From positions 124,001 through 188,000 of the forward strand of contig NZ_FNQZ01000006.1 of the NCBI RefSeq assembly GCF_900107545.1: 64,000 nt of DNA. The letters run 5' to 3'. A program made the translations under genes and the position numbers. The stretch is from Pseudobutyrivibrio sp. ACV-2. GTDB taxonomy: Bacteria; Bacillota; Clostridia; Lachnospirales; Lachnospiraceae. Below the pieces are notes generated by a model that saw only the letters and a program-made list of their open reading frames with translations, did not search any database and was not told where the DNA came from. Below, one piece after another: positions 22,724 to 59,745 of this stretch; positions within the stretch are counted from its first letter, which is position 1; each line of letters starts with the position of its first letter.

Positions 22724-22815
22724 AACAGCGGATACCCCTCTCAACAGGGTCATTCATACACAAATCGTACTTGTGAAACATGTGTTAGTCAGAGCTTGCT
22801 AAAAAAGTGAAAATA

Positions 22816-22901
22816 GCTTGTAGTCTACAATGTATCATGCCTCTAAAGCGAGGCATTCCTAGCCGAGTGTAGAGGTATGATACATTGTAGACGTAACAAG
22901 C
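22816..22901 (+). promoter_or_regulatory. Long imperfect hairpin in the leuA leader, related to the conserved-loop hairpins
   Basis: The 5' arm (22816-22845, starts GCTTGTAGTCTACAAT) pairs with the 3' arm (22870-22901, ends ATTGTAGACGTAACAAGC). About 29 pairs, with one G-U wobble and a 1x3 internal loop (A against GTA read 5'-3'). The apical loop of 24 nt (starts AAGCGAGGC, ends CGAGTG) differs from the other three hairpins. The basal sequence and internal loop are like the copy at 59032. No T-box hallmark (AGGGTGGNACCGCG) is present. The rest of the 22724-22992 gap is A/C-rich with no gene. Confidence 0.75.
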
Positions 22902-22992
22902 GAGCCACAACCCAAATTACAAACACAAAAATAAAGCAAGCCAAAACTTAAAGTGATAATTCACAAGTAAGCTATATTAAGGAGGAAGAACA

Positions 22993-42238: not shown

Positions 42239-43431
42239 TGAAGCATATATTAATAATTTGTCAGTACTTTTATCCTGAGCAGTTTAGGATAAATGATATG
42301 GCTTTTGAGTGGGTTAAAAGAGGATATAAAGTTACTGTAGTTACAGGAATACCTAATTATCCTGAGGGGAAATTTTATCCAGGTTACGGGTGGTTTAAAA
42401 ATACAGAAGAAACTGTAAATGGGGTGGAGATTCACAGAATTCCATTGATTGCAAGAGGAAATGGAAAGCTTGGTCTTATCATGAACTATTTCAGTTTTCC
42501 ATTTTTCGGCTTTTGGTGGAGCCTGTTTACAAGGATAAAAGCTGATGAAGTTTTCATGTTTGAAACCTCACCTATGAATCAATGCAAGGTAGGTGTACGT
42601 TATGCCAGAAAGCACAAGATTCCATGCTACCTTTATGTACAGGATTTGTGGCCAGAAAATGTGGAGATGATAACTGGTATACATTCACCAATTGTAGTTA
42701 AGCCTATTGAGAGAATGGTGAGAAAAATCTACAAGGGATGTACACATATTTGGGGTACAAGCCCAAGTTTTGTAGATGGAATTCGTAAATACGTAGATGA
42801 TAAGGAAAAGGACAAAGTAAGTTTTTGGCCACAGTATGCAGAGGAGTTTTACCAGCCACTTCCAAAGGTTGAGCATAAAGGCTTTAATGTGATTTTCACA
42901 GGTAATATTGGTCAGGCTCAGGGACTGGAGATTTTACCTTTTGCTGCGAAAATTATTCGTGAACAGGGAATCAAGAACATCCGATTTACTATTGTTGGAG
43001 ATGGTCGTGCCAGAAAGTCCTTTGAAGAATCAATCACTAAAAATGGTGTTTGGGATATGTTTGAGTTTGCAGGACGAGTTCAGCCAAAAGAAGTTCCAGG
43101 CCTTCTTGCCAAAGGCGATGCTGCTTTCATTTCATTTGCAGATGATGAACTCTTTGCAAAAACCATCCCTGCCAAATTGCAGTCATACATGGCATGTGCT
43201 ATGCCAATCATCGCATCAGCAAAAGGTGAAACAGCCAGAATCATCAAAGAAGCCGATTGCGGCATGTGCTCTAGTATCGGTGATGCCGAGGAGTTGGCTT
43301 TTAGCATAATAACAATGAGCAAGATGGCCCAGGAGCGAATCGCAGAAATGGGACAGAATGCTTTGAGCTACAATAAGAGTCACTTCGACAAAAAGACACT
43401 CATGGATGAGATGGATAAATATTTAAAATAA
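42238..43431 (+). CDS. WcaI/WbuB-like GT4 glycosyltransferase
   Basis: A 397-residue GT-B enzyme with the start I-L-I-I-C-Q-Y-F-Y-P-E-Q-F-R-I-N-D, typical of the WcaI/WbuB group (often N-acetylfucosamine or fucose transferases). The Y-V-Q-D-L-W-P-E-N motif is near residue 139 and the donor end (I-P-A-K-L-Q-S-Y-M-A-C-A-M-P-I-I) near 310. Translation is coupled to the acyltransferase (TAATG). A bidirectional terminator follows. Confidence 0.88.
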   Translation: MKHILIICQYFYPEQFRINDMAFEWVKRGYKVTVVTGIPNYPEGKFYPGYGWFKNTEETVNGVEIHRIPLIARGNGKLGLIMNYFSFPFFGFWWSLFTRIKADEVFMFETSPMNQCKVGVRYARKHKIPCYLYVQDLWPENVEMITGIHSPIVVKPIERMVRKIYKGCTHIWGTSPSFVDGIRKYVDDKEKDKVSFWPQYAEEFYQPLPKVEHKGFNVIFTGNIGQAQGLEILPFAAKIIREQGIKNIRFTIVGDGRARKSFEESITKNGVWDMFEFAGRVQPKEVPGLLAKGDAAFISFADDELFAKTIPAKLQSYMACAMPIIASAKGETARIIKEADCGMCSSIGDAEELAFSIITMSKMAQERIAEMGQNALSYNKSHFDKKTLMDEMDKYLK

Positions 43432-43479
43432 AAAATGCTTCTTCCATAGCTACAATACAGCATTGGAAGAAGCATTTTT
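43431..43479. terminator. Bidirectional terminator between convergent genes
   Basis: AAAAATGCTTCTTCCA (43431-43446) pairs with TGGAAGAAGCATTTTT (43464-43479). Flanking T and A runs let it act on both strands, ending the long plus operon and the minus CotH gene. Confidence 0.9.
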
Positions 43480-43481
43480 AT

Positions 43482-45164
43482 TTATAAAGATTCAATATAA
43501 AAATCCATGTATTTCATTCGCTCTATTACATAGTATCTAAAATCATCTAGCTTTACAGTAGAGTCGTAGTAGTTGCCATCAGGCCAGCGAGCCATGGTGC
43601 GGTCAAAAGCACCGGAATCATATATATCTGATTCATACTGATCAATCATGGAAACGAGGTTTTGATCAGATAATACAGATTCTCTTAAAACTACGTATCT
43701 GGCTTTGACTTGATTGATGATTTCTGTGTCACCACAGTTGATTAAAAATGGTACAGCCCCCCAATCGATAGTCAGGTCGTAGTCGATAGGATTGTAGTAG
43801 GAGCTTATCCCGTGATGACCTTCCCCGTCAACATATCTGTTCCCCCAGGTTTGATCCATATCCCATGGGGAAAAAAGGAGTTTGTATCCTTCGTACCCGG
43901 TTTCAGATAGTTTGGTGGCGGCATACAGGTTTTTTACTCCCGAACCATAAATGTTGTCAACCGCCTGAGTAAGCTTGTAGAATATCCATAAATCAATGGA
44001 ATTATCAGTATCCACGCTTTCACGAATGGTGTAAGGGTCGTTGGAATAGGCCATATTGTAATACAGCTGATGCAAAATACTGTAGCTTAATTCAGAACCG
44101 CTTTTAACAGTATATCCAGGCAGCCATAAAAGGTCGGGATTATCATCCATAGGCTCCAGGTCCAGGGCAAATTCGGTTTCAGACCAGTCGGATTTTTTGA
44201 ATAAAGCTTCTCCGGTGGAGATATTAAAAGATTTATTATCAATAGGGTAAGTCAACGCATACAGGCCGTGATATCTTCCATTAAAGAACAACTCCACATA
44301 TTTATACTGGTTTGATGCAGTCGCGCCCCATTCGTTGTTTTCCGATGACATCTGTCGCCACAAATTCATGGAAAACACAGTTCTGATTTTTTCATAATCC
44401 GAATATGCGGAATATAATATCCAATCGTCGTCGGTTCTAAGGCCCAATAGATTCATATTTTTAGAGTCACCGAAGTTGTTGGTTGAGTCTAAAAGAGTTA
44501 TGCGATAACTTTTTTGTGGAAAATCAACAGTGGTGCCGCCACGACGATGAATCTTGAGCGCTGTGTTTGTTGTTCTTTTGCTGGAATCGAAATCGTCACG
44601 GTTATCATACAAGGTCATATATCCCGGAGCGTAATCCAATATATCGTAGGTCTCGTCTAGATCTAATTCTAGAGCAGTATCCACTGAAATGGAAATATTC
44701 ATAAGCGGAAGATTAGTGACAACAAAATTTGAAACACTTATGGAATCTTTATTGTAAAGTATTAGCTTTGGTGCGTCGTTATTTAAAATGGCGGCGTGGA
44801 TGAAATTGCCCTTTAATGCTTCATCATAAGGATAGGTATCATTTTCGATGTGAAGAGTTTCCTTGCCAAAGTCGTTGCCATCAATGTGAGAATAGTAAAA
44901 GCTATTATCGATTACATCATATATAAGTTTTTCATCACCAATATATATTTCAGTAGTCAGGGGCGTTTCAGAAGGAATATTATATTTGGTCAGGGAATCA
45001 AAACGTCTTTGCGTAATGAAAATCTTGGAAATGGTATATTCCGGGGAAACTCTTGAAGAAGTCACAACGATAACCCAGGCGCAAATGGCCATAACAATAA
45101 TAAAAATTATGGAAAGGATGCGGTGAGTTAGGTTGATAGTAATGAGGTCTTTTATTCGTTCCAT
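43482..45164 (-). CDS. CotH-like kinase family protein
   Basis: CotH-family proteins are secretory-pathway kinases, known for phosphorylating spore coat proteins in Bacillus. One transmembrane helix lies at residues ~15-37, so the domain would be outside the membrane. The CotH core starts near residue 200 (L-K-I-H-R-R-G-G-T-T, P-Q-K-S-Y-R-I, then Y-H-G-L-Y-A-L near 305). The M-D-Q-T-W-G-N motif near 445 is the metal site (M-D-x-x-W). In clostridia it is often found, as here, beside VTC and DUF4956 genes. No spore genes lie near. Confidence 0.88.
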   Translation of the reverse strand: MERIKDLITINLTHRILSIIFIIVMAICAWVIVVTSSRVSPEYTISKIFITQRRFDSLTKYNIPSETPLTTEIYIGDEKLIYDVIDNSFYYSHIDGNDFGKETLHIENDTYPYDEALKGNFIHAAILNNDAPKLILYNKDSISVSNFVVTNLPLMNISISVDTALELDLDETYDILDYAPGYMTLYDNRDDFDSSKRTTNTALKIHRRGGTTVDFPQKSYRITLLDSTNNFGDSKNMNLLGLRTDDDWILYSAYSDYEKIRTVFSMNLWRQMSSENNEWGATASNQYKYVELFFNGRYHGLYALTYPIDNKSFNISTGEALFKKSDWSETEFALDLEPMDDNPDLLWLPGYTVKSGSELSYSILHQLYYNMAYSNDPYTIRESVDTDNSIDLWIFYKLTQAVDNIYGSGVKNLYAATKLSETGYEGYKLLFSPWDMDQTWGNRYVDGEGHHGISSYYNPIDYDLTIDWGAVPFLINCGDTEIINQVKARYVVLRESVLSDQNLVSMIDQYESDIYDSGAFDRTMARWPDGNYYDSTVKLDDFRYYVIERMKYMDFYIESL

Positions 45165-47503: not shown

Positions 47504-48322
47504 ATGAAAGTAGCATTTGGAACAGTAATATACAAGCAGGCAAAGCACTTTTTTAAAGATCTGATGACCTGCGTAGCTAATCAAACTGATATAGATTTTG
47601 ATGTTTTAATAGTAAATGACAACTATTCTAAAGTTGAACTTGAAGATTTAAATATTACTGCAGATATATTTTTAGACCTTGAGCCAAAGCATTGTTCTGT
47701 AGCACAGACCAGAATAGAGATGATAAAGGCGGCCAAGGCGGCAGGTTATGACCTACTTGTGGTGGCAGATGCAGATGATACCTTTGTCAATGCCAGAATT
47801 GAAGAGTATAAAAAAGCGTACGAATTAGACAAATCCTATGCTTTCTACTATAATGAATTGGTTACGGAGAATGGCAGTACTGTACTGGAAAGTATGCCTG
47901 AATTCGTGACAAGCGTTAAAGCTATCTCCCAAAGCAATTTTATTGGCATGGGAACAACAGCGATAAATCTTGCTTTACTTAGTGAGGAATATATTGATTC
48001 CCTAAGTGAAGGCGATTGCCCTGTGTTTGACTGGTATGTTTTCAGCAGACTTCTTATGGATGTGGGTGCAGGAAAGCTGGTTAGAAATGCCGCAACCATA
48101 TATCGCATTCACGATAACAACACAGTCGGCACCAGCCACAATGTGCAGCAGGAGTATCAGGTTAAGCTTACACATTATTTCAATTTAGCTAAACGTTATC
48201 CATACTTTAAGTATCTTTATGACGAATTAAAGGATTTGGATATTAATAAAATAGACACAAGCCAAAGTCACAACGGCTATTGGTGGAGCAACATAATTAT
48301 GGAGGATTCCTATGAGATTTAA
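47504..48322 (+). CDS. GT2-like glycosyltransferase
   Basis: A 272-residue GT-A-type protein. It starts K-V-A-F-G-T-V-I-Y-K-Q-A, with the A-D-A-D-D-T-F metal site near residue 90 and a later R-I-H-D-N-N-T-V-G motif near residue 205 (usual 'R-x-H-x-x-N' end of GT2). The stop overlaps the start of legI by 11 bp, so this may be the transferase of the nonulosonic acid or a partner. Its small size fits a cytoplasmic enzyme with one domain. Confidence 0.75.
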   Translation: MKVAFGTVIYKQAKHFFKDLMTCVANQTDIDFDVLIVNDNYSKVELEDLNITADIFLDLEPKHCSVAQTRIEMIKAAKAAGYDLLVVADADDTFVNARIEEYKKAYELDKSYAFYYNELVTENGSTVLESMPEFVTSVKAISQSNFIGMGTTAINLALLSEEYIDSLSEGDCPVFDWYVFSRLLMDVGAGKLVRNAATIYRIHDNNTVGTSHNVQQEYQVKLTHYFNLAKRYPYFKYLYDELKDLDINKIDTSQSHNGYWWSNIIMEDSYEI

Positions 48323-49361
48323 TTATCAGGATATGGTATCAGGTGGCAAAAAGCCATACGTTATTGCAGAGCTTGGAGCTAATCACAATGGTGATATGGA
48401 GCTTGCCAAGACAATGATCAAGACAGCAAAGGAGTGTGGTGCTGACTGCATCAAGCTTCAGTCTTTCACAAAGAGCAATGTATTTTCAAAGAAGAATTAT
48501 GAGGACAACTTCTTCCTTGGAGATGATTATAGAAACAGAACAGACTACACATTAGAGTCTATCGTAGAGGCTTACGCTCTTTCAAAGGAGCAGCATCACG
48601 AGCTCAAGGCATATTGTGATGAGCTTGATATCGATTTTACATCTACACCATTTGATAAAGCTGGTGTTGATTTACTTGTTGATGAGCTTCACGTGCCATT
48701 CATCAAGGTTGCATCTATGGACGTTGAAAACGTACCATTCCTTAAGTATATCGGAAGCAAGGGTGTGCCTGTAGTTATTTCTACTGGTCTTACAGGAATG
48801 GATGATGTAGTAAATGCTATCGCAGCAATCGAGGCAGGCGGCTGCAAGGAAATCTGCGTACTTCACTGTGTATCTATCTACCCACCAGCAGACGAGCAGG
48901 TTAACCTTAACAATATCGATATGTATCGCATGGCTTTTGGCTATCCTACAGGATATTCTGATCACACATTTGGCGTGGTTGCACCTATCATGTCTATTGC
49001 TAAAAATGTATGCATCATCGAGAAGCATTTCACAATGGACAAGAACATGAAGGGTTGGGATCACAAGATTTCAGCAAACCCAGAGGAAATGAAAATCATC
49101 TGCGATGCAGCAGAGCAAGGCTACAAGATGATGGGAAGCTTCCGTAAGGTAGTAAACGAGAGCAAGCATCAGCGTGAAGAATACAAGCGTTCAATCGTAG
49201 CAGCTCGTGACCTCAAAAAAGGCCACATCCTTACCGAGGACGACCTCGACTACAAACGCCCAGGCACAGCCATCTCACCAAAATTCTATGAGATGCTCAT
49301 CGGAAAAGAATTAAAGCGCGACATCACCGAAGACGAATTATTCCAGTGGGGCGATTTCTAA
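48312..49361 (+). CDS. legI: Nonulosonic acid synthase (LegI/NeuB type)
   Basis: It condenses PEP with a 6-carbon hexosamine (2,4-diacetamido-2,4,6-trideoxymannose for LegI, ManNAc for NeuB) to form the nonulosonic acid. NeuB domain: V-I-A-E-L-G-A-N-H-N-G-D near residue 17; D-C-I-K-L-Q-S-F; G-Y-S-D-H-T near 218; E-K-H-F-T. C-terminal SAF domain from ~285 (R-S-I-V-A-A-R-D-L-K-K-G). Length 349. GGAGG ribosome binding site. The last ~55 codons are strongly C-ending (about 26 of 31 pyrimidine-ending), next to the hairpin at 49420. Confidence 0.92.
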   Translation: MRFNYQDMVSGGKKPYVIAELGANHNGDMELAKTMIKTAKECGADCIKLQSFTKSNVFSKKNYEDNFFLGDDYRNRTDYTLESIVEAYALSKEQHHELKAYCDELDIDFTSTPFDKAGVDLLVDELHVPFIKVASMDVENVPFLKYIGSKGVPVVISTGLTGMDDVVNAIAAIEAGGCKEICVLHCVSIYPPADEQVNLNNIDMYRMAFGYPTGYSDHTFGVVAPIMSIAKNVCIIEKHFTMDKNMKGWDHKISANPEEMKIICDAAEQGYKMMGSFRKVVNESKHQREEYKRSIVAARDLKKGHILTEDDLDYKRPGTAISPKFYEMLIGKELKRDITEDELFQWGDF

Positions 49362-49419: not shown

Positions 49420-49511
49420 GCTGGCAGGTGGCAATTGCTATACCCACTATTTTTGAGAGTATAGTGAAAACGATGAAAAAATAGTGGGTATAGCAATTGT
49501 CGCCTGCCAGC
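49420..49511 (+). promoter_or_regulatory. Long hairpin with conserved 21-nt loop, copy 1 (upstream of legF)
   Basis: The 5' arm 49420-49454 (GCTGGCAGGTGGCAATTGC...) pairs with the 3' arm 49476-49511 over ~35 bp. Two departures, both G-U wobbles on the plus strand. The 21-nt loop (49455-49475) starts GAGAGTATAGTG and ends AACGATG, flanked by T5 and A6. The legF start codon is 24 bases after the stem. Confidence 0.9.
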
Positions 49512-49534
49512 GGAGGATTGAGAAAGAGTAAATT

Positions 49535-50236
49535 ATGATTGCATTTATTCCAGCTAGAGGTGGCTCCAAAGGAGTCCCAGGAAAAAACATAAAAGAAATA
49601 TGTGGCAAGCCTTTGATTGCATGGACTATAGAGGCCGCCAAAAAAGCAAAATGTATAGATAGAGTAATCGTCACCACTGATGATGAAACCATTGCAGCAG
49701 TAGCAAAAGAATATGGTGCAGAGGTCCCATTTATGAGACCAGCGGAGCTTTCAAGCGATACCGCATCAGCTATCGATGTTTATCTTCATGCTACAGAGTT
49801 CGTCATGAATGAAACAGGCGAAAAAATTGATAAGTTCATGGTACTTCTTCCTACAGTTCCTCTTAGAACTGAAAAGCACATAGAAGAAGCTATTGCCCAG
49901 TTTAAAGCGGATGATGCCACTACTCTTATTTCATTTGCAGAAGCCGAGGTCCCAGCCAGCTGGTACCACGTAACAGACGAAAATGGCAGAGTTCATAATG
50001 CAGGCTTTGGCACAGGGGTAACCATGAGCAACCGCCAGAATAATGAGACTTACATAGTCCCAAATGGTGCAATTTACATTTTGGATTATGACCTTTTGAA
50101 AAATAACAGAACCTATTATTGTGATAACACAGTGGCATATATCATGAGTCGTGAGGATTCAATAGACATTGATTATCCTATCGATTTTGAGTTTGCAAAA
50201 TGCCTGATGGAAAAGAGAGTTAATGACACTATTTAG
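49535..50236 (+). CDS. legF: CMP-nonulosonic acid cytidylyltransferase (LegF/NeuA type)
   Basis: It activates the nonulosonic acid with CTP to give the CMP donor. The signature I-P-A-R-G-G-S-K-G-V-P-G-K-N-I is at residues 5-19; T-D-D-E near residue 50; the L-L-P-T-V-P-L-R segment near 108. Length 233, normal. The leader holds a long hairpin (49420-49511); only a weak AAAGAG site is near the start. The next gene overlaps by 14 bp. Confidence 0.92.
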   Translation: MIAFIPARGGSKGVPGKNIKEICGKPLIAWTIEAAKKAKCIDRVIVTTDDETIAAVAKEYGAEVPFMRPAELSSDTASAIDVYLHATEFVMNETGEKIDKFMVLLPTVPLRTEKHIEEAIAQFKADDATTLISFAEAEVPASWYHVTDENGRVHNAGFGTGVTMSNRQNNETYIVPNGAIYILDYDLLKNNRTYYCDNTVAYIMSREDSIDIDYPIDFEFAKCLMEKRVNDTI

Positions 50237-51425
50237 AGCCATAGCCTTTTTGCTGCATTTCACCATAATACCGGTAGCAATAGGCAGACTAATTACATAT
50301 ACTAAAAAAAATCCTGCCGGTAAGAAGCCGGTAGTTACATATTTTGTTGGATGGTTTTCGTCGCTGGGAATTTTTTATGTTTTATGCTCAGTGCTTGAGT
50401 GGCATCAATATTGGAATACTTTTGACAAACCATTTACAGGTTCTTTTTCAGCATTATGTATTTCCTATTCATTTATAACTATGTGTATGTGTCTTGGTTG
50501 GGTGAAAAAGGATTTTGCCCAAATAAAATTGGCACTAAGCAAGCTTAAAAATGTACCAAGTTGGATAGGTCAAAAATTAAATCGTGGTATAAAGGATAAA
50601 ATATATAAAATCTTATATACCGCAGTATTTGCAGTTATATTAGGTGTTCAGTTATATTTTGCCTATGGATACCAAGTGGGAGAATGGTCATATGACGATT
50701 ATGACTATGTAGTAAATAGTCAGGATACTATAACTACAGATACGATAGCATACGTAAATTATATTACTGGCGAAATGCCATTTACTGCAGATAAAAGAGC
50801 TGTTGTAGCATGGCCTACTTACATTGCATATTTGGCTAAAATATCAGGATTTGAAGTTGCCACTATATGCCATACTATAATGCCTGTTATATTGCTTTTG
50901 GTAGCGTATTTTGCATTATATTATATGGCTATGTTCCTGTTTGAAGAATTTGAAAATCGTATGATTTTCATGAGTTTGTTGGCTTTTACTTTTATGTTTG
51001 GTTTTTATTCGCACAGTTCATTGACATTTAGATTGCTAGGTACTCTATGGCAGGGTAAGGCGGTTCTTGGAGCTATAGCATTGCCTTTCTTTATGATTTA
51101 TTTATTTGATGAATATAAGAGTGACATTAAAAATACAAACGCTGTTCAGATTGCGCTAGTTTCGCTAGGAATTAGCTCGTTAAGCAGTATGGGATTGATT
51201 CTCTTACCATGTCTTGATATGAGTGTCTGGTTTGTTATGTGCATTTACCATAGACGTATTTACGGATTGAGATATTTAGTTGCCAGCCTATTTGGTGTTA
51301 TCTATTTATACGTATTTTACATACTTATGAGTATGCTGATTCAGGATATGGCGGGAGTTACTAGAATTTTTCATCGTGGGAAAGATATTAACTGGTGGTA
51401 TAGATGGTTTGGAACGAATTTCTAA
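50223..51425 (+). CDS. Polytopic membrane protein, probably N-terminal part of a split gene
   Basis: A 400-residue protein with about ten transmembrane helices and D-D-Y-D-Y in the first large loop (residue ~158), like GT-C or DUF6077-type proteins. It ends abruptly after W-W-Y-R-W-F-G-T-N-F, and the next frame (51404) continues with more helices and the expected soluble end. So either one gene is split by a frameshift at about 51404-51425, or the two are coupled genes. A sequencing error could do the same. It overlaps legF by 14 bp. Confidence 0.6.
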   Translation: MTLFRAIAFLLHFTIIPVAIGRLITYTKKNPAGKKPVVTYFVGWFSSLGIFYVLCSVLEWHQYWNTFDKPFTGSFSALCISYSFITMCMCLGWVKKDFAQIKLALSKLKNVPSWIGQKLNRGIKDKIYKILYTAVFAVILGVQLYFAYGYQVGEWSYDDYDYVVNSQDTITTDTIAYVNYITGEMPFTADKRAVVAWPTYIAYLAKISGFEVATICHTIMPVILLLVAYFALYYMAMFLFEEFENRMIFMSLLAFTFMFGFYSHSSLTFRLLGTLWQGKAVLGAIALPFFMIYLFDEYKSDIKNTNAVQIALVSLGISSLSSMGLILLPCLDMSVWFVMCIYHRRIYGLRYLVASLFGVIYLYVFYILMSMLIQDMAGVTRIFHRGKDINWWYRWFGTNF

Positions 51426-52951
51426 TTTATATTTCCAATGAATATTGGGGAAATTATATTTTTGCAGCACTGTTTGGTATCGCTCTCATTGGTATATTTT
51501 TTATAGAAAAAGAAAAAATCAAAAGATATGGATTTTTATGGTATCCACTTTTAATTCTAATATTTATCTATAATCCTTTAACAGTTTATCTCAGTGGAAA
51601 AATATATGAGGCTAGTACATTCGATCAGTATTTCAGACGTTTTTTTAATTTGATACCTGTTATCGGTATAATTGCGTATGGATTAGTCTTGAGTTTAACA
51701 AAACTGCATGGCAAGAAGAAATTTATCGCTTTCATTGGCATGTTACTAACAATCAGTATAATAGGACATTCAATTTACTCAGAAGAATGGTTTGCGAAGG
51801 CTGAAAACAGAATGAAGGTACCGCAGGATGTGGTAACCATTTCAGATTTGTTTGCGGATTATGATAGTGATAAAATACGAATAATGGCGCCAAAGGATTT
51901 GGCAGTTTACCTTAGGCAGATTGACTCAAGGTTTTCAATGCCTTACGCCAGAGATATTCCAGATGAGGCTTATGAGCTTACCAATCCTATACCAAAGCCT
52001 CAGATAATAGTGGATTATTGCAAAGAGGAAAATATAGATTTTGTAGTTGTGTCGGCAGTAGATACTGTACTTAATACTTACCTGAATTATGGATTTAAGT
52101 TATATGGCAGAACTACCTACTATGCTGTGCTTGAGCCAAACGACCCTGATTGGATTTTGACTGAGTATGAGGATGAATCCGGTGACCAGGGCATGGCGTA
52201 TATCATGAAAAATATAAACGATGGCACTGTCATCGTTATAGATGGTGGCAACGCAGGCAATGAAGAGCAGATGCGAAAGGCCATCAAGAAAAACGGTGGA
52301 GTGGTTGATGCCTGGATTTTATCCCATTATCACAAGGATCACATAGATACCTTCAATGCTATCTACGAAAATCCTAAGGGTATCAAGATTAAAAATATTT
52401 ATGCCACACCACTTGATGCTGAAACATTCCATAGCCTTCCATTGGAAGAGTGGGATGATGTGGATACATTCGAGACATTTCAGCAGATAACAACAGGTGC
52501 AGACAACATCAACTATATCGATAGAAATGATGTTTTGACATTTTCAGATGGGCTTAAGATTACATTTTTCAACAGCTGTGATGATGTTGTTATTGAAGGG
52601 CGAGAGGACGTACCAAATAATGTCTCACTGGTTTTCAAGATGGAAACAGAGGACAGAAGTATTCTGATTTGTGCAGACGCTCATAGCAAATATCTTGCAG
52701 AGTATCTGGTAGATACCTACGGCGAGGATTTACATGCAGATATCCTCCAGTGTGGACATCATGGCAACAACAGTATGCCAGCAGAAACACATTTTTATGA
52801 GGTGGTAGCACCAGAGATTGCAATATTTGACGCACCTGAGTGGGTTATGACTGGTGCAGAATACACAGCCGGAGCACTGGCTGCATATCTGCAAGACCTT
52901 GGCGCAAGAATAGTGTGGTTTGAAACAGCACCTAATATATTTGGATTTTAG
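51404..52951 (+). CDS. Membrane segment fused to a metallo-β-lactamase-fold hydrolase
   Basis: 515 residues. Residues ~15-125 form about four transmembrane helices, likely the end of the membrane domain of the preceding frame. Residues ~140-245 are a soluble end typical of such GT-C-like proteins. Residues ~265-515 are an MBL domain of the ComEC/Rec2 hydrolase type: V-I-D-G-G-N, then L-S-H-Y-H-K-D-H-I-D with His308, His310, Asp312 and His313; D-A-H near 422 and H-H-G-N-N near 448. The active site seems whole. I know no family with this membrane plus MBL order. Confidence 0.7.
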   Translation: MVWNEFLIYISNEYWGNYIFAALFGIALIGIFFIEKEKIKRYGFLWYPLLILIFIYNPLTVYLSGKIYEASTFDQYFRRFFNLIPVIGIIAYGLVLSLTKLHGKKKFIAFIGMLLTISIIGHSIYSEEWFAKAENRMKVPQDVVTISDLFADYDSDKIRIMAPKDLAVYLRQIDSRFSMPYARDIPDEAYELTNPIPKPQIIVDYCKEENIDFVVVSAVDTVLNTYLNYGFKLYGRTTYYAVLEPNDPDWILTEYEDESGDQGMAYIMKNINDGTVIVIDGGNAGNEEQMRKAIKKNGGVVDAWILSHYHKDHIDTFNAIYENPKGIKIKNIYATPLDAETFHSLPLEEWDDVDTFETFQQITTGADNINYIDRNDVLTFSDGLKITFFNSCDDVVIEGREDVPNNVSLVFKMETEDRSILICADAHSKYLAEYLVDTYGEDLHADILQCGHHGNNSMPAETHFYEVVAPEIAIFDAPEWVMTGAEYTAGALAAYLQDLGARIVWFETAPNIFGF

Positions 52952-52966
52952 TTGTGGAGATTTAAA

Positions 52967-54226
52967 ATGAAACAAATACTTGAGAATAAAAAGTGGATAT
53001 CTATTATTATAATCTCATTAGTAGTATATATACGATGCTCTTATGGTGTTGTCAGAAATTATGCTGTAGTAATGAATGTTATAGTAGTAGGAATTGGCTT
53101 TCTATATTGTTGCATATTAACTGCTAATGATTATAAAGCAACAAAGAATAGCATTATTAATCCAGCAATACTATGGTTGGTGGTATTTGTTTTTTTTGAA
53201 TTTATATATGGACATTTTAAGCTATTTATAAATACAGACGAATATAGTATGCAGTATACATTGTTAACAATTGTACCTGCATTATTGTGTTATGAAATAT
53301 TATGGCACAATAAAGATGATATATTAGATATTCTTACCAGTGTTGGAAGTTTCGTAATTATCGTGGTCTTTATAACAAATATTCTTTATGATTCATTATG
53401 GGATGAAGTCCGTGCAGGTGTTTTGGTAAGGGTTGGTGAATTGCCAGGTGCATCAGTTATTGACACCGGTAACCTTTACTTATTAATGTTGATTCCAATC
53501 TTATACGCAATCATAGTTGAACGGAAGAGGCTAATACTTCTTATTCCTACAGTAGTAGGAATAAGTGGAATTTTATTGTCAGGCTCAAAGTCGTCACTTA
53601 TTCCAATAGTTTTTGTGTTTGCCATATTATTTATTGGTTCATCTAATGATCAGATTACACTAAAGAAAAATATATGTATTTTTTTAGCAGTTATATGTTT
53701 CTTAGGTATTCTTTGTTATTTTGTACCTCTATTAAATGATATTGTTATAGGCAGAATAGTAGAGTTGTTAGAGGAAGCGAACGCCACAGAATATAACTTT
53801 AAGACAAGTACTGGTCAAAGAAAAGCAATATGGGATGCATTTAAGGCTCATTTTTTTGAAAAACCAATACTAGGGCATGGATTTTATGCATTTAAAGAAA
53901 TGCCATATTCAGCATGTACTTTGGTAAAAATATCAGAAGGAGTTTATGAGTTAGAAAACTCACAAACTCATATGAATTATACGGAGATTCTTTTCTCGTT
54001 CGGAATTGTTGGATTTATATTGTATTATTGGCTACCTGTATTATTATTAGTTAAGTCATTCTTATCAAAGAATAGGGTTGGAAAAATGATAGGGCTGTCA
54101 ATGTTGGTATCTTTTATCTTTATTGATATGGGACTGGATATGTTCTATAAGTACATGACACCATATTATGTATATTTATTGGTATATATATTAGTTGGAG
54201 CAAAAGATGCTCAGGAGGAGAGATAA
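52967..54226 (+). CDS. O-antigen ligase/polymerase-like membrane protein (Wzy type)
   Basis: About 419 residues and ten to twelve transmembrane helices. The ATG at 52967 has GTGGAGA six bases upstream. A Wzy_C-like large loop lies around residues 265-335 (T-G-Q-R-K-A-I-W-D-A-F, G-H-G-F-Y-A, and N-S-Q-T-H-M-N-Y-T-E-I-L near 320). Such proteins join lipid-linked units into polymer or ligate them. Which of the two initiating transferases it serves is not clear. The coding sequence is A/T-rich relative to its neighbours. Confidence 0.82.
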   Translation: MKQILENKKWISIIIISLVVYIRCSYGVVRNYAVVMNVIVVGIGFLYCCILTANDYKATKNSIINPAILWLVVFVFFEFIYGHFKLFINTDEYSMQYTLLTIVPALLCYEILWHNKDDILDILTSVGSFVIIVVFITNILYDSLWDEVRAGVLVRVGELPGASVIDTGNLYLLMLIPILYAIIVERKRLILLIPTVVGISGILLSGSKSSLIPIVFVFAILFIGSSNDQITLKKNICIFLAVICFLGILCYFVPLLNDIVIGRIVELLEEANATEYNFKTSTGQRKAIWDAFKAHFFEKPILGHGFYAFKEMPYSACTLVKISEGVYELENSQTHMNYTEILFSFGIVGFILYYWLPVLLLVKSFLSKNRVGKMIGLSMLVSFIFIDMGLDMFYKYMTPYYVYLLVYILVGAKDAQEER

Positions 54227-54230
54227 TATT

Positions 54231-55310
54231 ATGAAATATGCAATTATCGGATGCGGACGTATTTCACCAAACCACGTTGTTGCATCACAGAAAACAGGAT
54301 TAGATTTAGTAGCACTTTGTGACCTTGACCTTAAAAATACTGAGGACAAAATCAGAAAATTTGATTTGGATGCTAACTATGTAAAGCAGTACACAGACTA
54401 CAAGGAGATGCTTGCAAATGAAAAGCCAGAACTTGTAGCTATCGCCACAGAGTCAGGAAAGCATGCTCAGATTGCTCTCGACTGCATCGAAGCAGGATGC
54501 CATGTTATCATTGAAAAGCCAATCGCACTTTCACTTGCAGATGCTGATGCAATTATCGAGGCTGGTCACAGAAAGGGTGTTAAGGTATGTGCCTGCCACC
54601 AGAACAGATTTAACAAGTCTATCCAGATGATTAGAGAAGCTCTTGAAAAGGGAAGATTTGGTCGTCTTTTATATGGAACAGCTCACATCCGCTGGGCACG
54701 TGACCACGAGTACTATGACCGCGCTTCATGGAGAGGCACATGGGAGCAGGATGGTGGAGCACTTATGAATCAGTGTATCCATGACATCGACCTTCTCCGT
54801 TGGATGATGGGTGATGACGTTGTTAGAGTAGTTGGTATGACAGACAGATTAAAGCACGACTATATACAGGCAGAGGATTTAGGTATTGCATTAGTTCAGT
54901 TTGCCAACGGAAGCTATGGTATCATCGAAGGTACTACAAATGTATTCCCTAAGAACCTTGAAGAGACACTTTATATCTTCGGTGACAAGGGAACTGTAAA
55001 GGCTGGCGGTGACGCTGTAAACCTTCTTGAGGAGTGGAACTTCTCTGATTACATCGATGAGCCAGAGCAGGTAAAGAAGGAGTGTTCAGAGCTCCCTCCA
55101 AACGTATATGGTTTTGGTCACTCAAAGCTATATCGCGATGTAATTGATGCTATAGAAAATGATAGAGAGCCATATGTAAATGGTGAGGCAGGACGCCGCG
55201 CCCTTGAGATGGTTCTTGCAATTTATAAATCGGCTGCAACAGGCGAGAGCGTAGAGTTCCCACTTAAGGACTGCAGCACAATGGATTTTGTAGGAAGATT
55301 TGATAAATAA
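54231..55310 (+). CDS. Gfo/Idh/MocA family sugar oxidoreductase (WbpB/WlbA-like)
   Basis: An NAD(P)-dependent dehydrogenase of 359 residues. The ATG at 54231 follows AGGAGGAGAG. Rossmann motif I-I-G-C-G-R-I-S-P-N-H near residue 5; the catalytic E-K-P near 97; and G-G-A-L-M-N-Q-C-I-H-D-I-D-L-L near 176, which is common in WbpB/WlbA UDP-GlcNAcA 3-dehydrogenases. In the wbp route this acts before the amidinotransfer trio, which is present here at 57817-60525. But no 6-dehydrogenase (WbpA) is here, so a PtmF-like or another role is open. Confidence 0.85.
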   Translation: MKYAIIGCGRISPNHVVASQKTGLDLVALCDLDLKNTEDKIRKFDLDANYVKQYTDYKEMLANEKPELVAIATESGKHAQIALDCIEAGCHVIIEKPIALSLADADAIIEAGHRKGVKVCACHQNRFNKSIQMIREALEKGRFGRLLYGTAHIRWARDHEYYDRASWRGTWEQDGGALMNQCIHDIDLLRWMMGDDVVRVVGMTDRLKHDYIQAEDLGIALVQFANGSYGIIEGTTNVFPKNLEETLYIFGDKGTVKAGGDAVNLLEEWNFSDYIDEPEQVKKECSELPPNVYGFGHSKLYRDVIDAIENDREPYVNGEAGRRALEMVLAIYKSAATGESVEFPLKDCSTMDFVGRFDK

Positions 55311-55311
55311 A

Positions 55312-56277
55312 ATGAAAGAATATGGCGGCCCATTGCCACTTGAACTAAAGAAAATAAACAAATCCTTCTTCCCAGGGTTTCAGCATGTAGCTCTAAACTC
55401 TGGAAGAAGTGCTATTGCATATGCAGCTCTTGCAGGAGACTTTGAGAAGGTATACATACCTTACTACACCTGCAAGACAGTAGAAGCTGGTTTGCTTGAA
55501 GCTGGTATAGAGGTTTTATATTACAACATTGACAATCAGTTTATGCCAGTTGAGCCCGAAGGCGGTTTTGATAATACTGCATTATTCGTATATACGAATT
55601 ATTTTGGTATAATGACACATGTGCAGCAGATGGATATTATTGCTGAACATAGTCACGTATTATTCGATAATACTCAGGGATTTTTCACAAAACCTGTCCG
55701 TGGTTCGTATAGTGCCTATAGCTGCAGAAAGTTTTTTGGAGTTCCAGATGGTGCATTTCTTGTAGCTGATAGATTAAAAGGCTTAGACATTCCAAAAGGA
55801 AACAGTGCAGAAACAGCTGGATTTTTATTTAAGTCTCTTGAGGCAGGGCCAGATTCATCTTATGAAATGTCAAAAGAAAATGAAGAGCATATTAACTCTG
55901 AGGGAATGTGTTACATGTCATCCCTCACCAAAGCTCTGATGGAAAGCATAGATATAGAATCAGTAAATGACAAAAGAATAGCAAACTTTAATGCTATTCA
56001 TAATAGATTGAAGCATATCAATCAGTTGTCACCTGTGTTGGAAAACGGGGCTCCTATGGTTTATCCTCTTTTAGTAGAAAAAGAAGGTGTCAGAGAGCAT
56101 TTGGTTGCCAACAAAATATTCGTCCCACGTTGGTGGAGATGGATTGCAGAATCTGATAAGACTAATGATTTTGAAAAGCATTTGTCTAAATATCTGGTTC
56201 CAGTACCGATTACACAGATTTATGATATAGAGGATATGGAATACATATCTAAAATAATATTAGAGTATGTAAACTGA
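55312..56277 (+). CDS. DegT-like PLP-dependent aminotransferase relative
   Basis: 321 residues from the ATG at 55312 (a TTG at 55300 is also possible). N-S-G-R-S-A-I-A-Y-A-A near residue 29 corresponds to the DegT phosphate loop; I-P-Y-Y-T-C follows. The lysine site is A-Y-S-C-R-K-F-F-G-V-P-D-G-A near residue 145, a variant of the usual S-F-x-x-x-K-x-x-x-x-G-x-G. It is a divergent branch, also shorter than LegC. Next to the WbpB-like gene it may provide the matching aminotransfer. Confidence 0.7.
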   Translation: MKEYGGPLPLELKKINKSFFPGFQHVALNSGRSAIAYAALAGDFEKVYIPYYTCKTVEAGLLEAGIEVLYYNIDNQFMPVEPEGGFDNTALFVYTNYFGIMTHVQQMDIIAEHSHVLFDNTQGFFTKPVRGSYSAYSCRKFFGVPDGAFLVADRLKGLDIPKGNSAETAGFLFKSLEAGPDSSYEMSKENEEHINSEGMCYMSSLTKALMESIDIESVNDKRIANFNAIHNRLKHINQLSPVLENGAPMVYPLLVEKEGVREHLVANKIFVPRWWRWIAESDKTNDFEKHLSKYLVPVPITQIYDIEDMEYISKIILEYVN

Positions 56278-56284
56278 GGGCAGA

Positions 56285-57649
56285 ATGAAGAATAAAAATA
56301 CCGTTAGAAAAATCGAAAGTATAATTGAATTGCTTATTATGGCCGTGGCTTATTATTTCATGTGGAAATATAAGATTTTTGACAGGGCATATTTTTATCC
56401 ATTCCTGGGTCGAGGCAAATACGTATTGATGGGCATATATTTTCTTATGATGCTTGTCATCATCCATTTGTGTGAAGGCTTTAAGTATGGATACCTTAGA
56501 ATAGCAGATGTACTGTTTTCTCAGTGGATAGGTATTTTTATAGTAAACTTTATCACCTATTTGCAGTTGAGTCTGATGGCCAATTTGCTTATTCCGGCAG
56601 GGCCACTTGTGATACTTACTCTTATTGATTTTGCATTTTCTTTTGTTTGTGTATATATATTCTTTGCAATATATGATAGATATGCCAGAGCAAGCAAGCT
56701 TTTGATGGTATATGGCAAAAAGGAATCAGTTGGTCTTAAGCTTAAGATGGACACCCGTTCAGATAGCTACAATGTCAGCAAAATTGTAAGCATCACTGAG
56801 GGCATGGATAAAATCATCGAGTTGATGAAGGATTATGACGGTATCGTCATTTCGGATGTAGGTGCAAAAAAACGTAATGACTTATTGAAATATTGCTACA
56901 TGCATAACATCCAGACTTACATTACACCAAAGATTTCCGATGTTATCATTTCAGGCGGCGAAAAGATTCATCAGTTTGATACACCACTTGTACATATCAA
57001 TACAACAGGTCTCACACCCGAGCAGGAGTTTGTAAAGCGCTTTTTTGATATAGTATTATGCACAGTGGCATCTGTGGTATTGTCACCACTTATGATAATC
57101 ATTGCCATTGCTATAAAGCTAGAGGATCATGGTCCTGTATTTTACAAGCAGGCCCGTGTGACAAAGGATGGCAAAGTATTTGATATTTTGAAATTTAGAA
57201 GTATGGTAGAAAACGCAGATCAGCGTCCAGCCGATGATGATGACGACAGAATCACAAAGGTAGGACATGTAATTCGTGCTACTCGTGTAGACGAGCTACC
57301 ACAGCTTTTCAACATAATAAAGGGCGACATGTCAATCGTAGGCCCACGTCCAGAACGCACAGAACACGTGGAAAAATACACTGAGGCTATCCCAGAATTC
57401 GAGCTTCGTAGCAAAGTAAAGGGCGGTCTTACAGGATATGCACAGATTTACGGAAAGTATAATACCTCCGCATACGACAAACTCAAGCTAGACTTGATGT
57501 ACATTGAAAAATATAGCTTTTTATTAGACATCAAACTCGTCCTAATGACAGTGCGCATCCTATTCAAAAAAGAGAGCACCGAAGGCTTCGACAAAATCGT
57601 CAACCCCGACGAAATCCTAAAAGACCTCGAAGCCGATTCAAACGATTAA
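56285..57649 (+). CDS. Second initiating sugar-phosphate transferase
   Basis: A 454-residue paralogue of the gene at 28598. N-terminal four transmembrane helices, then the Bac_transf domain: D-H-G-P-V-F-Y-K-Q-A-R near residue 280, L-K-F-R-S-M, R-P-E-R-T-E, and G-L-T-G-Y-A-Q-I-Y-G-K-Y. It would start a second polyprenyl-linked glycan. The last ~40 codons are almost entirely C- or A-ending (22 of 24 pyrimidine-ending codons end in C by my count), unlike the middle (about half). This patch abuts the hairpin at 57695. Confidence 0.9.
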   Translation: MKNKNTVRKIESIIELLIMAVAYYFMWKYKIFDRAYFYPFLGRGKYVLMGIYFLMMLVIIHLCEGFKYGYLRIADVLFSQWIGIFIVNFITYLQLSLMANLLIPAGPLVILTLIDFAFSFVCVYIFFAIYDRYARASKLLMVYGKKESVGLKLKMDTRSDSYNVSKIVSITEGMDKIIELMKDYDGIVISDVGAKKRNDLLKYCYMHNIQTYITPKISDVIISGGEKIHQFDTPLVHINTTGLTPEQEFVKRFFDIVLCTVASVVLSPLMIIIAIAIKLEDHGPVFYKQARVTKDGKVFDILKFRSMVENADQRPADDDDDRITKVGHVIRATRVDELPQLFNIIKGDMSIVGPRPERTEHVEKYTEAIPEFELRSKVKGGLTGYAQIYGKYNTSAYDKLKLDLMYIEKYSFLLDIKLVLMTVRILFKKESTEGFDKIVNPDEILKDLEADSND

Positions 57650-57694
57650 TCGTTGTATTTCGTTATTAATAAATTACAATGTTTTTTAAAGTAA

Positions 57695-57788
57695 GCTTGT
57701 GTGCTGCTGTTTGGATTTATGAGCATTTTTGAGAGTATAGTGACAACGATGAAAAAATGTTCATAAATCCAAACAGCAGCCTGCAAGC
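57695..57788 (+). promoter_or_regulatory. Long hairpin with conserved 21-nt loop, copy 2 (upstream of the amidotransferase)
   Basis: The 5' arm 57695-57730 (GCTTGTGTGCTGCTGTTTGG...) pairs with the 3' arm 57752-57788. There are three G-U wobbles and one U-C mismatch. The loop (57731-57751) is the same as copies 1 and 3 but for one A to C change (GTGACAACG). The start of the amidotransferase is 28 bases after the stem. Confidence 0.9.
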
Positions 57789-57816
57789 GGGGTTCTTAGA
57801 AAGAGTAAAGAAAACT

Positions 57817-58974
57817 ATGCCAATATACGTACCTAAAATTAAAAGAGAATTTCAACGCTGCACTCAATGTGTTATGGACACTACAGACTCCATGATTGTC
57901 TTTGACGAAGAAGGTGTCTGTGATCACTGCCGCAACTTCGAAAAAAATATAAAACCATATTGGGATCCTACAAAGGAAAATCGTGAAGAGCTGGAAAAAG
58001 TAGCAGCTCAGATTCGAAAAGATGGAGAGGGCAAGGATTACGATTGCATCCTTGGAATGTCAGGAGGAGCAGATAGCTCTTATCTGGCATATATTGCCAA
58101 GGAGGTAATGCATCTTCGTCCTCTTATTTACGTTGTAGACACCGGTTGGAATCTTAACGTAGCTGTTGAAAACATTGAAAAGATTGTCAAGGGAATGGAC
58201 CTTGATATGTATACAGACGTTATCAACTGGAAAGAAATGAGTGATTTTCAGCTTTCAATGTTTAAGTCTGGCATTAGTAGTTGTGATGCCCCACAGGATC
58301 ACGCTATTTTCTCATCGCTTTACAATTATGCAGTAAAGCATAAGATTAAATGGGTCCTTACAGGTTCTAACAACAGTACAGAATTCGTTCGACCACCTGT
58401 TGAATGGATTTACATGAATGACCTGAGAATGTATAAGGATATCCATAAGAAATTTGGTAAGCGTCCACTGAAGACCTATCCTACCTGTGGCATCCTAAAA
58501 TATCGTCTACTCTATAAATATGTTTATGGAATGAAACGCTTTTATCCACTTGACTATGTTGTTTATGACAAGGCTAAGGCTGAAGAATTCCTTCACGAAA
58601 AATACGGATGGACAAAATACGAAAATAAGCACTATGAAAACGTATTCACCAGATTTTTCGAAGGCTATTATTTGCCATATAAATTTGGTTTTGATACACG
58701 TAAAAATGTATTCTCAACCCAGATTCTTGCTGGAACAATGACCCGTGAAGAAGCATTGGAGAAACTTAAGACCAATCCATACGACGTGGATCAAATGGAG
58801 CAGGACAAGGAATACATAGCTAAAAAGCTAGGCGTAACAACAGAGGAATTTGACGAAATCATAAACGCTCCAGCCCACGTTCCGGATGACTACAAAAACT
58901 CCATGTGGATGATTCGTTTGGGCGTAAAAATAAGTCAGCTGTTAGGCATCGAAAAACGTAATATGCGTTTCTAG
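57817..58974 (+). CDS. N-acetyl sugar amidotransferase (WbpG/PseA-like)
   Basis: It converts an acetamido group on a sugar to an acetamidino group with ammonia from the HisH-HisF pair. I choose ATG 57817 (M-P-I-Y-V-P-K-I-K-R-E-F); upstream in-frame ATG at 57757 would start inside the hairpin. Zinc cysteines C-T-Q-C (residues ~15-18) and C-D-H-C (~37-40); PP-loop ATPase motif S-G-G-A-D-S-S near residue 83; T-G-S-N-N-S-T-E near 185. Length 385. It lies between two of the long hairpins. Confidence 0.9.
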   Translation: MPIYVPKIKREFQRCTQCVMDTTDSMIVFDEEGVCDHCRNFEKNIKPYWDPTKENREELEKVAAQIRKDGEGKDYDCILGMSGGADSSYLAYIAKEVMHLRPLIYVVDTGWNLNVAVENIEKIVKGMDLDMYTDVINWKEMSDFQLSMFKSGISSCDAPQDHAIFSSLYNYAVKHKIKWVLTGSNNSTEFVRPPVEWIYMNDLRMYKDIHKKFGKRPLKTYPTCGILKYRLLYKYVYGMKRFYPLDYVVYDKAKAEEFLHEKYGWTKYENKHYENVFTRFFEGYYLPYKFGFDTRKNVFSTQILAGTMTREEALEKLKTNPYDVDQMEQDKEYIAKKLGVTTEEFDEIINAPAHVPDDYKNSMWMIRLGVKISQLLGIEKRNMRF

Positions 58975-59031
58975 CGTATATTTCGTTTTTACCTAATACA
59001 TTCTGATAGTAAATTTTAAGAGAAAGAGTAA

Positions 59032-59121
59032 GCCGGTAGGCTGCAATCTGCATGGGGATTTTTTGAGAGTATAGTGAAAACGATGAAAAAAATCCCCATG
59101 CAGATTGTAGCCGTAACCGGC
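59032..59121 (+). promoter_or_regulatory. Long hairpin with conserved 21-nt loop, copy 3 (upstream of hisH)
   Basis: The 5' arm 59032-59064 (GCCGGTAGGCTGCAATC...) pairs with the 3' arm 59086-59121, with one G-U wobble and a 1x3 internal loop like the one in the leuA leader. The loop (59065-59085) is identical to copy 1. hisH starts 18 bases after the stem; a GTG in the loop is in frame with hisH. Confidence 0.9.
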
Positions 59122-59139: not shown

Positions 59140-59745
59140 ATGGTAGCAATAATAAACTATGGCCTGGGTAATCTAGGCAGTATAGCAAATATGCTTAAGG
59201 TAATTGGCGAAAAAAGCGTAATTACTTCAGACCCGGAGAAAATAAAAAACGCAGATCGAATCATCCTCCCAGGCGTAGGTGCATTCGATGCAGGCATGAG
59301 CAAACTAAACGAGGGCGGCCTGGTGGATCTGATTAAAGAAGAAGCAAAAAATGGCAAGCCAATCCTTGGTATCTGCCTCGGAATGCAGCTTTTAGGAAAT
59401 GCTTCAGAGGAAGGTGAACTTCCAGGACTTGGACTCATAGATTTTGAATGTAAAAAGTTTAATATCCCGGCAGAAATGAATCTTAAAGTACCTCACATGG
59501 GATGGGATATTGTAGAGTTTAAAAAGGATGTGCCACTTCTTAGAGGGATTGAAGGCCGACAGAGATATTACTTTGTACATACATATCATGCGGTCTGCAA
59601 GAATCCAGAGGATGTTATGATGACATGCGATTATGGTTATGAATTTGCATGTGCCGTAAATAAAGGCAATGTGTATGGTGTACAGTTCCATCCGGAAAAG
59701 AGCCATGACTTTGGCATGAGACTACTCGAGAATTTCGTCAAATAA
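59140..59745 (+). CDS. hisH: HisH-like glutamine amidotransferase for sugar amidination
   Basis: It frees ammonia from glutamine for its HisF-like partner. 201 residues from ATG 59140 (M-V-A-I-I-N-Y-G-L-G-N-L), the usual start; a longer frame from 59074 begins within the hairpin. Nucleophile Cys79 in G-I-C-L-G-M-Q, with His184 and Glu186 in H-P-E-K. No other his gene is around, and it is between the amidotransferase and hisF genes, so it most likely serves sugar amidination and not histidine synthesis. Confidence 0.9.
   Translation: MVAIINYGLGNLGSIANMLKVIGEKSVITSDPEKIKNADRIILPGVGAFDAGMSKLNEGGLVDLIKEEAKNGKPILGICLGMQLLGNASEEGELPGLGLIDFECKKFNIPAEMNLKVPHMGWDIVEFKKDVPLLRGIEGRQRYYFVHTYHAVCKNPEDVMMTCDYGYEFACAVNKGNVYGVQFHPEKSHDFGMRLLENFVK

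What the first reader, a model, noticed from the sequence alone, without database searches (positions are those of the whole stretch)
49420..59121. Three long RNA-type hairpins with an invariant 21-nt loop and unrelated stems
Seen directly: hairpins at 49420-49511, 57695-57788 and 59032-59121 have stems of about 33-36 bp. The middle of the stem differs entirely between copies while pairing is kept, and the loop (starts GAGAGTATAGTG, ends AACGATG, closed by T5-6 / A6-7) is identical but for one base in copy 2. Of the non-Watson-Crick positions I count in these three stems and the leuA one, seven are G-U on the plus strand, one is U-C and none is A-C. This directional bias is what selection for a plus-strand RNA fold leaves. 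I know no such class. It could be an RNase III substrate, a protein-binding leader or a mobile hairpin.
Basis: seen in the sequence. Interest (0 to 1): 0.9.

Follow-up and report, generated by a model that had tools for sequence, protein, structure and literature searches.

The report
Genus-wide RNA hairpins with swappable heads
The three long hairpins belong to a family of RNA hairpins, absent from the Rfam catalogue, scattered between genes in the bacterial genus Pseudobutyrivibrio, whose tips are conserved while their stems change sequence but stay paired, which points to an unknown job at the RNA level.

Summary
Hairpins at 49420-49511, 57695-57788 and 59032-59121 share one loop on unrelated, paired stems. 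A covariance model of this "alpha" type finds 38 copies in the window's own genome and matches in 17 of 29 genomes of its genus (Pseudobutyrivibrio), but in none of 297 other Lachnospiraceae genomes. All 26 modelled stem pairs covary; G-U outnumbers A-C 70 to 9 on the loop strand.

Alpha is a variant of a larger family. A beta model matches 28 of 29 genus genomes, with 18-132 matches in 26 of them (some are alpha copies). Both heads sit on one base and stalk and replace each other before rlmB. Rfam 15 has neither.

Copies avoid genes (0 of 13 in ORFs covering 86% of an evenly spaced sample) and follow co-directional neighbours 35 to 5, which suggests function in mRNA. Occupancy changes quickly, and antisense copies keep the G-U bias, which suits a mobile element. 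Seven copy-rich genomes have neither IS200-type transposase nor reverse transcriptase.

Best reading: a genus-specific BOX/REP-like structured repeat acting as an mRNA element. The mechanism is inferred.

The parts
49420..49511 (+). alpha hairpin 1, between a NeuB-family gene (48312-49361) and a PseF-like cytidylyltransferase gene (49535-50236)
   Evidence: (R1 84 bits, E 2.5e-17)
49455..49476 (+). alpha head GAGAGUAUAGUGAAAACGAUGA
57695..57788 (+). alpha hairpin 2, between an EPS sugar transferase gene (56285-57649) and a WbuX-family N-acetyl sugar amidotransferase gene (57817-58974)
   Evidence: (R1 82.5 bits, E 5.4e-17)
57731..57752 (+). alpha head GAGAGUAUAGUGACAACGAUGA
59032..59121 (+). 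alpha hairpin 3, between WbuX (57817-58974) and a HisH gene (59140-59745); keeps the shared base (GUAG / CGUAAC) and also matches the beta model
   Evidence: R2 E 3.7e-8; R1 86.5 bits, E 6.2e-18
59065..59086 (+). alpha head GAGAGUAUAGUGAAAACGAUGA
   Evidence: (R2 73.3 bits, E 2.5e-18)
22848..22868 (+). beta head GCGAGGCAUUCCUAGCCGAGU (2-bp stem, GA/GA, 3-bp stem, loop)
   Evidence: the 2-bp stem is read by eye

Best explanation
The hairpins are members of a Pseudobutyrivibrio family of modular structured intergenic repeats that work as RNA inside mRNAs. SHOWN by sequence comparison: an element can have a conserved base (GUA/GUAA internal loop; clear in most beta matches read and in 24 of 76 alpha copies), a long stalk whose sequence is free so long as it pairs, and a conserved head (alpha: 4-nt bulge GARU plus AUAGY-GNNA-RCGAU; beta: GA/GA flanked by short stems). 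Heads differ between species on the same base at the same locus. Copies are intergenic, mostly sense-oriented, and turn over between species. INFERRED: head and base are docking sites for a trans-acting RNA-binding protein or RNase, with the stem as spacer. The element acts where it is co-transcribed, most likely as an intercistronic processing, decay-blocking or insulating hairpin upstream of the next gene's ordinary ribosome-binding site. How it spreads is unknown.
For: Covariation: 26 of 26 alpha stem pairs have changes on both sides, score 0.885 against 0.221 shuffled and at most 0.224 when partners are slid. Beta: 98.3% of cells paired, 23 of 26 pairs with changes on both sides, 0.587 against 0.157 (fitted to the model, three of 65 rows are alpha). 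G-U over A-C: 70:9, 111:15 alpha, 24:4 beta. Head pairs covary: Y-R inside the alpha head and GA/GA to Watson-Crick; the middle pair of the beta 3-bp stem has four pair types and no unpaired sequence. Intergenic: 0 of 13 copies in a 600-kb sample lie in ORFs of 150 aa or more that cover 86% of it. Sense: 35 of 40 copies with co-directional neighbours in two genomes; 42 against 3 among 63 beta-model matches; 51 against 10 among 76 alpha copies. The leading strand does not explain this: 32:3 with it in co-directional gaps but 2:4 in convergent ones, Fisher p 0.0045, 7 ambiguous copies dropped. Head exchange before rlmB: 29 genomes, at least 13 changes of state.
Against: No expression or binding data were available. 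12 of 29 genomes have no element before rlmB, so that copy is dispensable. 10 of 76 alpha copies lie antisense to both neighbours yet still favour G-U on the head strand (19:5), which a function purely in the neighbours' mRNA does not predict. Divergent gaps hold 1 of 51 copies in two genomes but 8 of 76 in the alpha set, although six of those 8 rest on small ORFs that overlap the hairpin. Genes after hairpins have ordinary Shine-Dalgarno sites (46 against 529 controls, p 0.056), so no direct role in initiation is indicated.
Confidence: 0.53

Rival explanations
1. A non-autonomous mobile DNA hairpin (REP or MITE type): the head strand folds as single-stranded DNA and is moved by a transposase; conservation of head, base and pairing reflects selfish mobility, not host function.
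For: High and lineage-dependent copy number, rapid gain, loss and head change at one site, tandem arrays and nested modules, G-U bias kept in antisense copies (19:5), one gap (niaR-ung, names recalled) occupied in opposite orientations in two species.
Against: Sense bias 35:5 and 1 of 51 copies in divergent gaps. Y1 transposase in 10 of 29 genomes and RT in 15 of 29; G002, G003, G004, G008, G012, G013 and G016 have neither but 31-72 beta-model matches each. The most similar alpha copies are mostly orthologous or tandem. No target-site duplication was established. Other transposase families were not searched.
Confidence: 0.27
2. An RNase III (or other double-strand RNase) processing site that separates cistrons, like transcribed Correia elements; the head only caps a long duplex.
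For: Near-perfect duplexes of 26-36 bp within operons; Correia elements are reported to bind RNase III and be cut or protected (start of the abstract of PMC2649163).
Against: A plain duplex needs no invariant head or base and should not care about orientation. It is partly a sub-case of the best explanation.
Confidence: 0.12
3. Neutral palindromes perfected by template switching during replication, no RNA role.
For: Could produce well-matched arms of unrelated sequence; some changes between close copies are double transversions.
Against: Predicts equal G-U and A-C and no conserved head; observed 111:15, a near-invariant core and orientation bias.
Confidence: 0.04
4. A cis-regulatory leader or riboswitch for specific genes.
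For: Several gene junctions are occupied in more than one species.
Against: Many unrelated neighbours, convergent 3' locations, repeated absence at the same gene; no Rfam hit at gathering level in the window.
Confidence: 0.04

Closest known systems
BOX elements of Streptococcus pneumoniae (also RUP, SPRITE)
   Same: Many copies, modular (boxA, variable number of boxB, boxC), predicted to fold when transcribed, may affect co-transcribed genes (passages of PMC3049150).
   Different: BOX modules are modelled there by sequence HMMs; here the long stem is free in sequence and held by pairing, and alternative heads share one base. No BOX sequence was compared here.
REP/BIME with RAYT (Y1) transposases
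   Same: Extragenic imperfect palindromes in high copy; REPs have a GT(A/G)G head (passages of PMC2817692), and the base here contains GUAG.
   Different: In that paper REP number tracks the rayt gene; here 16 of the 26 copy-rich genomes have no Y1 gene, and GUAG lies inside the stem above a further helix of about 5 bp.
Correia repeat enclosed elements (CREE) of Neisseria
   Same: Intergenic repeats that can bind RNase III and be cut or protected (start of the abstract of PMC2649163).
   Different: CREE arms are inverted repeats of common sequence (recalled); here arms differ between copies. No CREE sequence was compared.
ERIC elements
   Same: Reported to destabilise upstream transcript in one orientation within operons (passage of PMC3049150).
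   Different: A conserved sequence element of enterobacteria (recalled); no modular heads known to me.

Membership tests
REP/RAYT | copy number linked to a Y1 (PF01797) transposase in the genome | tested here: not met
   10 of 29 genomes have Y1; G003 (71 beta-model matches), G012 (72) and G022 (98) have none
REP/RAYT | GT(A/G)G head at the 5' foot of the palindrome | tested here: inconclusive
   GUAG is present but inside the helix in most beta matches; both base motifs in 24 of 76 alpha copies, 0.43 expected from shuffles
REP/RAYT | rayt gene flanked by two inverted REPs | not tested
   not searched for
MITE | target-site duplication and terminal inverted repeats shared with an insertion sequence | tested here: inconclusive
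   by-eye comparison of filled and empty rlmB and tal sites gave no clean duplication; no insertion sequence was compared
BOX | modular structured intergenic repeat in many copies | tested here: met
BOX | boxA/boxB/boxC sequences | not tested
   no BOX sequence was compared
any Rfam 15 family | match at gathering score | tested here: not met
   (window, gathering): none; (24 loci, relaxed threshold): 9 microRNA-type hits in all, each below gathering score
intrinsic terminator | hairpin followed by a U-run | tested here: not met
   no U-run follows the three stems (by eye); the scan lists no site there, but its loop limit of 8 nt excludes these hairpins

The most novel reading that the evidence does not exclude
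A bacterial family of RNA modules that spreads at the RNA level: heads and stalks are inserted into the loops of existing hairpins in mRNA and become DNA later. This would give sense orientation, hairpin-in-hairpin nesting, head exchange on one base, and head-strand G-U preference together. The heads would be the ligands of an undescribed RNA-binding machinery of Pseudobutyrivibrio.
Probability: 0.07. Interest if true: 0.9.

Novelty: new variant of a known kind. Interest (0 to 1): 0.65.

Why it matters
Small interspersed repeats are usually recognised by sequence. In the alpha type identity lies in the head (and partly the base), while the long stem is constrained mainly to pair, so sequence-based repeat searches would miss many copies. 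The family offers dozens of natural compensatory experiments per genome. It makes testable the question whether such repeats are host mRNA elements or selfish, because heads, orientation and occupancy vary at one locus among related species.

Tried and rejected
Rfam at gathering and relaxed thresholds: nothing above gathering score. Viral contigs, exact patterns only: the alpha core with a GAAA loop gave one IMG/VR hit with no stem; the beta stalk gave 4 stretches, none matching model R2 at E up to 1, and the beta head none. An earlier alpha pattern was badly written, as its last letter excluded class I, and was replaced. Other genera: R1 and R2 each matched only the 2 genomes of the window's genus among 299 family genomes, with 16 and 14 candidates scored per genome under stricter filters, so weak matches may be missed. 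The core pattern hit 3 further genomes of 397, all without flanking stems. The Acidobacteria hit (L058) was dropped from A1 as chance, by eye. Translation-start role: not supported. RT or Y1 partner: not supported. Replication-strand origin of the orientation bias: disfavoured on small numbers. Stem identity of alpha copies (median 0.375 over 2850 pairs) gave no sign of recent alpha dispersal; beta copies look more alike, so recent beta spread is not excluded. In 11 close pairs, changed stem pairs were 21 double changes with a transversion, 10 double transitions, 15 wobble, 19 single breaks and 7 double unpaired, some inflated by ungapped comparison.

Papers: full-text searches listed no report that I recognised as these hairpins; listings show only the top entries, and only openly licensed PubMed Central papers are held. 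For PMC3049150 and PMC2817692 I saw passages, for PMC2649163 the start of the abstract in the listing. PMC2267715 (stem-loop families in bacterial genomes) was seen only in a listing and could hold relevant material.
Full report
WHAT IS THERE. They sit in short gaps of a polysaccharide/nonulosonate gene cluster: between a NeuB-family gene and a PseF-like gene (its NCBIfam score is below the PseF cut-off), between an EPS sugar transferase gene and WbuX, and between WbuX and HisH. The loop with its T/A runs is found three times in the window and not in 100 shuffles. Gene names outside the window (rlmB, tal, araA, nadB, niaR, ung and others) are recalled from protein sequences and were not tested with family models.

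THE ALPHA FAMILY. The core occurs with up to one mismatch in 11 of 29 genomes of the genus. MAFFT aligned 39 copies of 74 nt without gaps (A1). Eight of the 47 copies had been left out: the Acidobacteria hit, one near-duplicate (L022), a decayed neighbour (L034:1358), and L017, L020, L023, L031 and L043. Several of these pair less well without gaps, so A1 is somewhat favourable. In A1 all 26 stem pairs show changes on both sides, 91.6% of cells pair, and the covariation score is 0.885 against 0.221 in shuffles and at most 0.224 in slid controls. Non-Watson-Crick stem cells are 70 G-U, 9 A-C and 82 other. Model R1 built from A1 finds 38 matches in the window's genome, 37 of them with E below 1e-7, and matches at E up to 0.1 in 17 of 29 genus genomes. 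It matched none of 297 other Lachnospiraceae genomes, with 16 candidates per genome scored.

STRUCTURE OF THE HEAD. GUGAAAAC and GCGAAAGC alternate, so G-C and Y-R pairs close a GNNA tetraloop. A second subclass has NNN-GAGUAUAGCGAAAGCGAU-NNN with Watson-Crick pairs where class I has GA/GA. The constant core is therefore a four-nucleotide stretch GARU followed by AUAGY-GNNA-RCGAU; pairing of its A-U and U-A positions is assumed, as they hardly vary.

A SECOND HEAD ON THE SAME STALK. Reading upstream of rlmB in 29 genomes, I classed by eye 4 alpha, 1 decayed alpha, 8 beta (core GAGACAUGUAGUCGA), 2 of a related head (AAUC...GAU), 2 with the base only, and 12 with none; four of the 12 keep a short leader motif. 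Most filled sites share the base AGAAAGAGUAAGC..GUAG / CGUAAC..GCGUAGG. Between close relatives G006 and G011/G014 the difference is a single block of about 97 nt inside a base hairpin. On an rlmB+tal tree these states need at least 13 changes (shuffled mean 15.1; as low in 18 of 200, so barely clustered by descent), and alpha needs 3, forced by well-supported branches. At tal, 27 loci were readable: five carry alpha-type heads, and in G008 the element lies between arms that form a small hairpin by themselves in unfilled relatives such as G001 (by eye).

BETA IS THE MAIN FAMILY. Model R2, built from nine rlmB copies, matches 28 of 29 genus genomes at E up to 0.001: 0, 1 and 5 matches in G015, G017 and G018, and 18-132 in the other 26, 53 of them in the window's genome; at most 150 candidates per genome were scored. 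R2 also picks up alpha copies that keep the base, so these are not pure beta counts; of 65 matches read, three are alpha. It matched none of 297 other Lachnospiraceae genomes, 14 candidates scored each. The window holds one beta copy at 22814-22903 before leuA, and two of its three alpha hairpins also match R2 (E 3.7e-8 and 1.3e-4). In the 65 aligned matches 98.3% of cells pair and 23 of 26 pairs have changes on both sides (fitted to the model).

WHERE COPIES LIE. In 600 kb taken at even spacing from G028 and G003, 13 copies were found, none in ORFs of at least 150 aa that cover 86% of that DNA. Of 51 places examined in those genomes, a mixture of best model hits and sampled copies, 40 have co-directional neighbours (35 sense, 5 antisense), 8 are convergent, 1 divergent and 2 unclear. 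Leading-strand agreement is 32:3 in co-directional but 2:4 in convergent gaps (p 0.0045; 7 ambiguous dropped), so direction follows genes rather than replication, on small numbers. The alpha set has 51 sense, 10 antisense, 8 divergent, 5 convergent and 2 unclear of 76; six of the 8 divergent calls rest on small ORFs overlapping the hairpin. The beta-model set has 42 sense, 3 antisense, 8 convergent, 4 divergent and 6 unclear of 63. All these use simple ORF calls, and some copies are orthologous.

RESULTS AGAINST A SIMPLE mRNA READING. The 10 antisense alpha copies keep G-U over A-C on the head strand (19:5). At niaR-ung the element lies in opposite orientation in G021 and in the window's genome. 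Occupancy is unstable. These fit a mobile element, or independent transcription of some copies.

PARTNERS. Y1 transposase is in 10 of 29 and reverse transcriptase in 15 of 29 genomes; seven copy-rich genomes have neither. Exact-pattern scans of viral contigs found no member. Genes after hairpins have normal Shine-Dalgarno sites.

INTERPRETATION. Covariation, G-U preference, sense orientation and avoidance of coding DNA point to a function of the folded RNA in mRNAs. A conserved head, with a conserved base in many copies, suggests a bound protein. Turnover and head exchange place the family beside BOX, REP and Correia repeats, but with alpha stems held by pairing rather than sequence. Which protein binds, and whether processing, stability or spread is the selected effect, cannot be told from sequence. 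After checking I lowered the main confidence slightly (0.55 to 0.53) and raised the mobile-DNA rival, because the avoidance of divergent gaps is clear only in the two-genome set.

Noticed in passing
L090 (own genome) and L265:233-380; free copy in L097, minus strand, near 3028: A further module (AAAGUGAU-hairpin-AUCAGGAG-short hairpin-CGAC) is inserted in the tetraloop of two alpha heads and occurs once on its own.
   Followed up: partly
L067 (own genome, before a nadB-like gene): Four alpha hairpins in tandem about 102 bp apart; two neighbours have stems 86% alike and differ mostly by compensated pairs.
   Followed up: partly
L122:2528 and L050:4602 (niaR-ung gap, names recalled): The same gap holds the element in opposite orientations in two species, as if the centre of the palindrome had flipped.
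   Followed up: partly
L128, L138, L154, L156, L141, L155, L092, L102: A third alpha subclass (head usually GAAUAUAG) before tal-, purF- and carA-like genes, with a shared U-U mismatch in the stem, seen by eye.
   Followed up: no
window 43418-43492: Inverted repeat of 34 nt with a 7-nt spacer where two convergent ORFs end, not of this family; perhaps a bidirectional terminator.
   Followed up: no
G000:C37:88330-93998 (hits): Broken Y1 transposase and reverse-transcriptase pieces lie close together in the window's genome.
   Followed up: no
window 49521-49531, 57798-57808, 59021-59031; rlmB leaders of many species: A short motif AGAAAGAGUAA recurs beside the hairpins and, in part, before rlmB even where no hairpin is present.
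   Followed up: no
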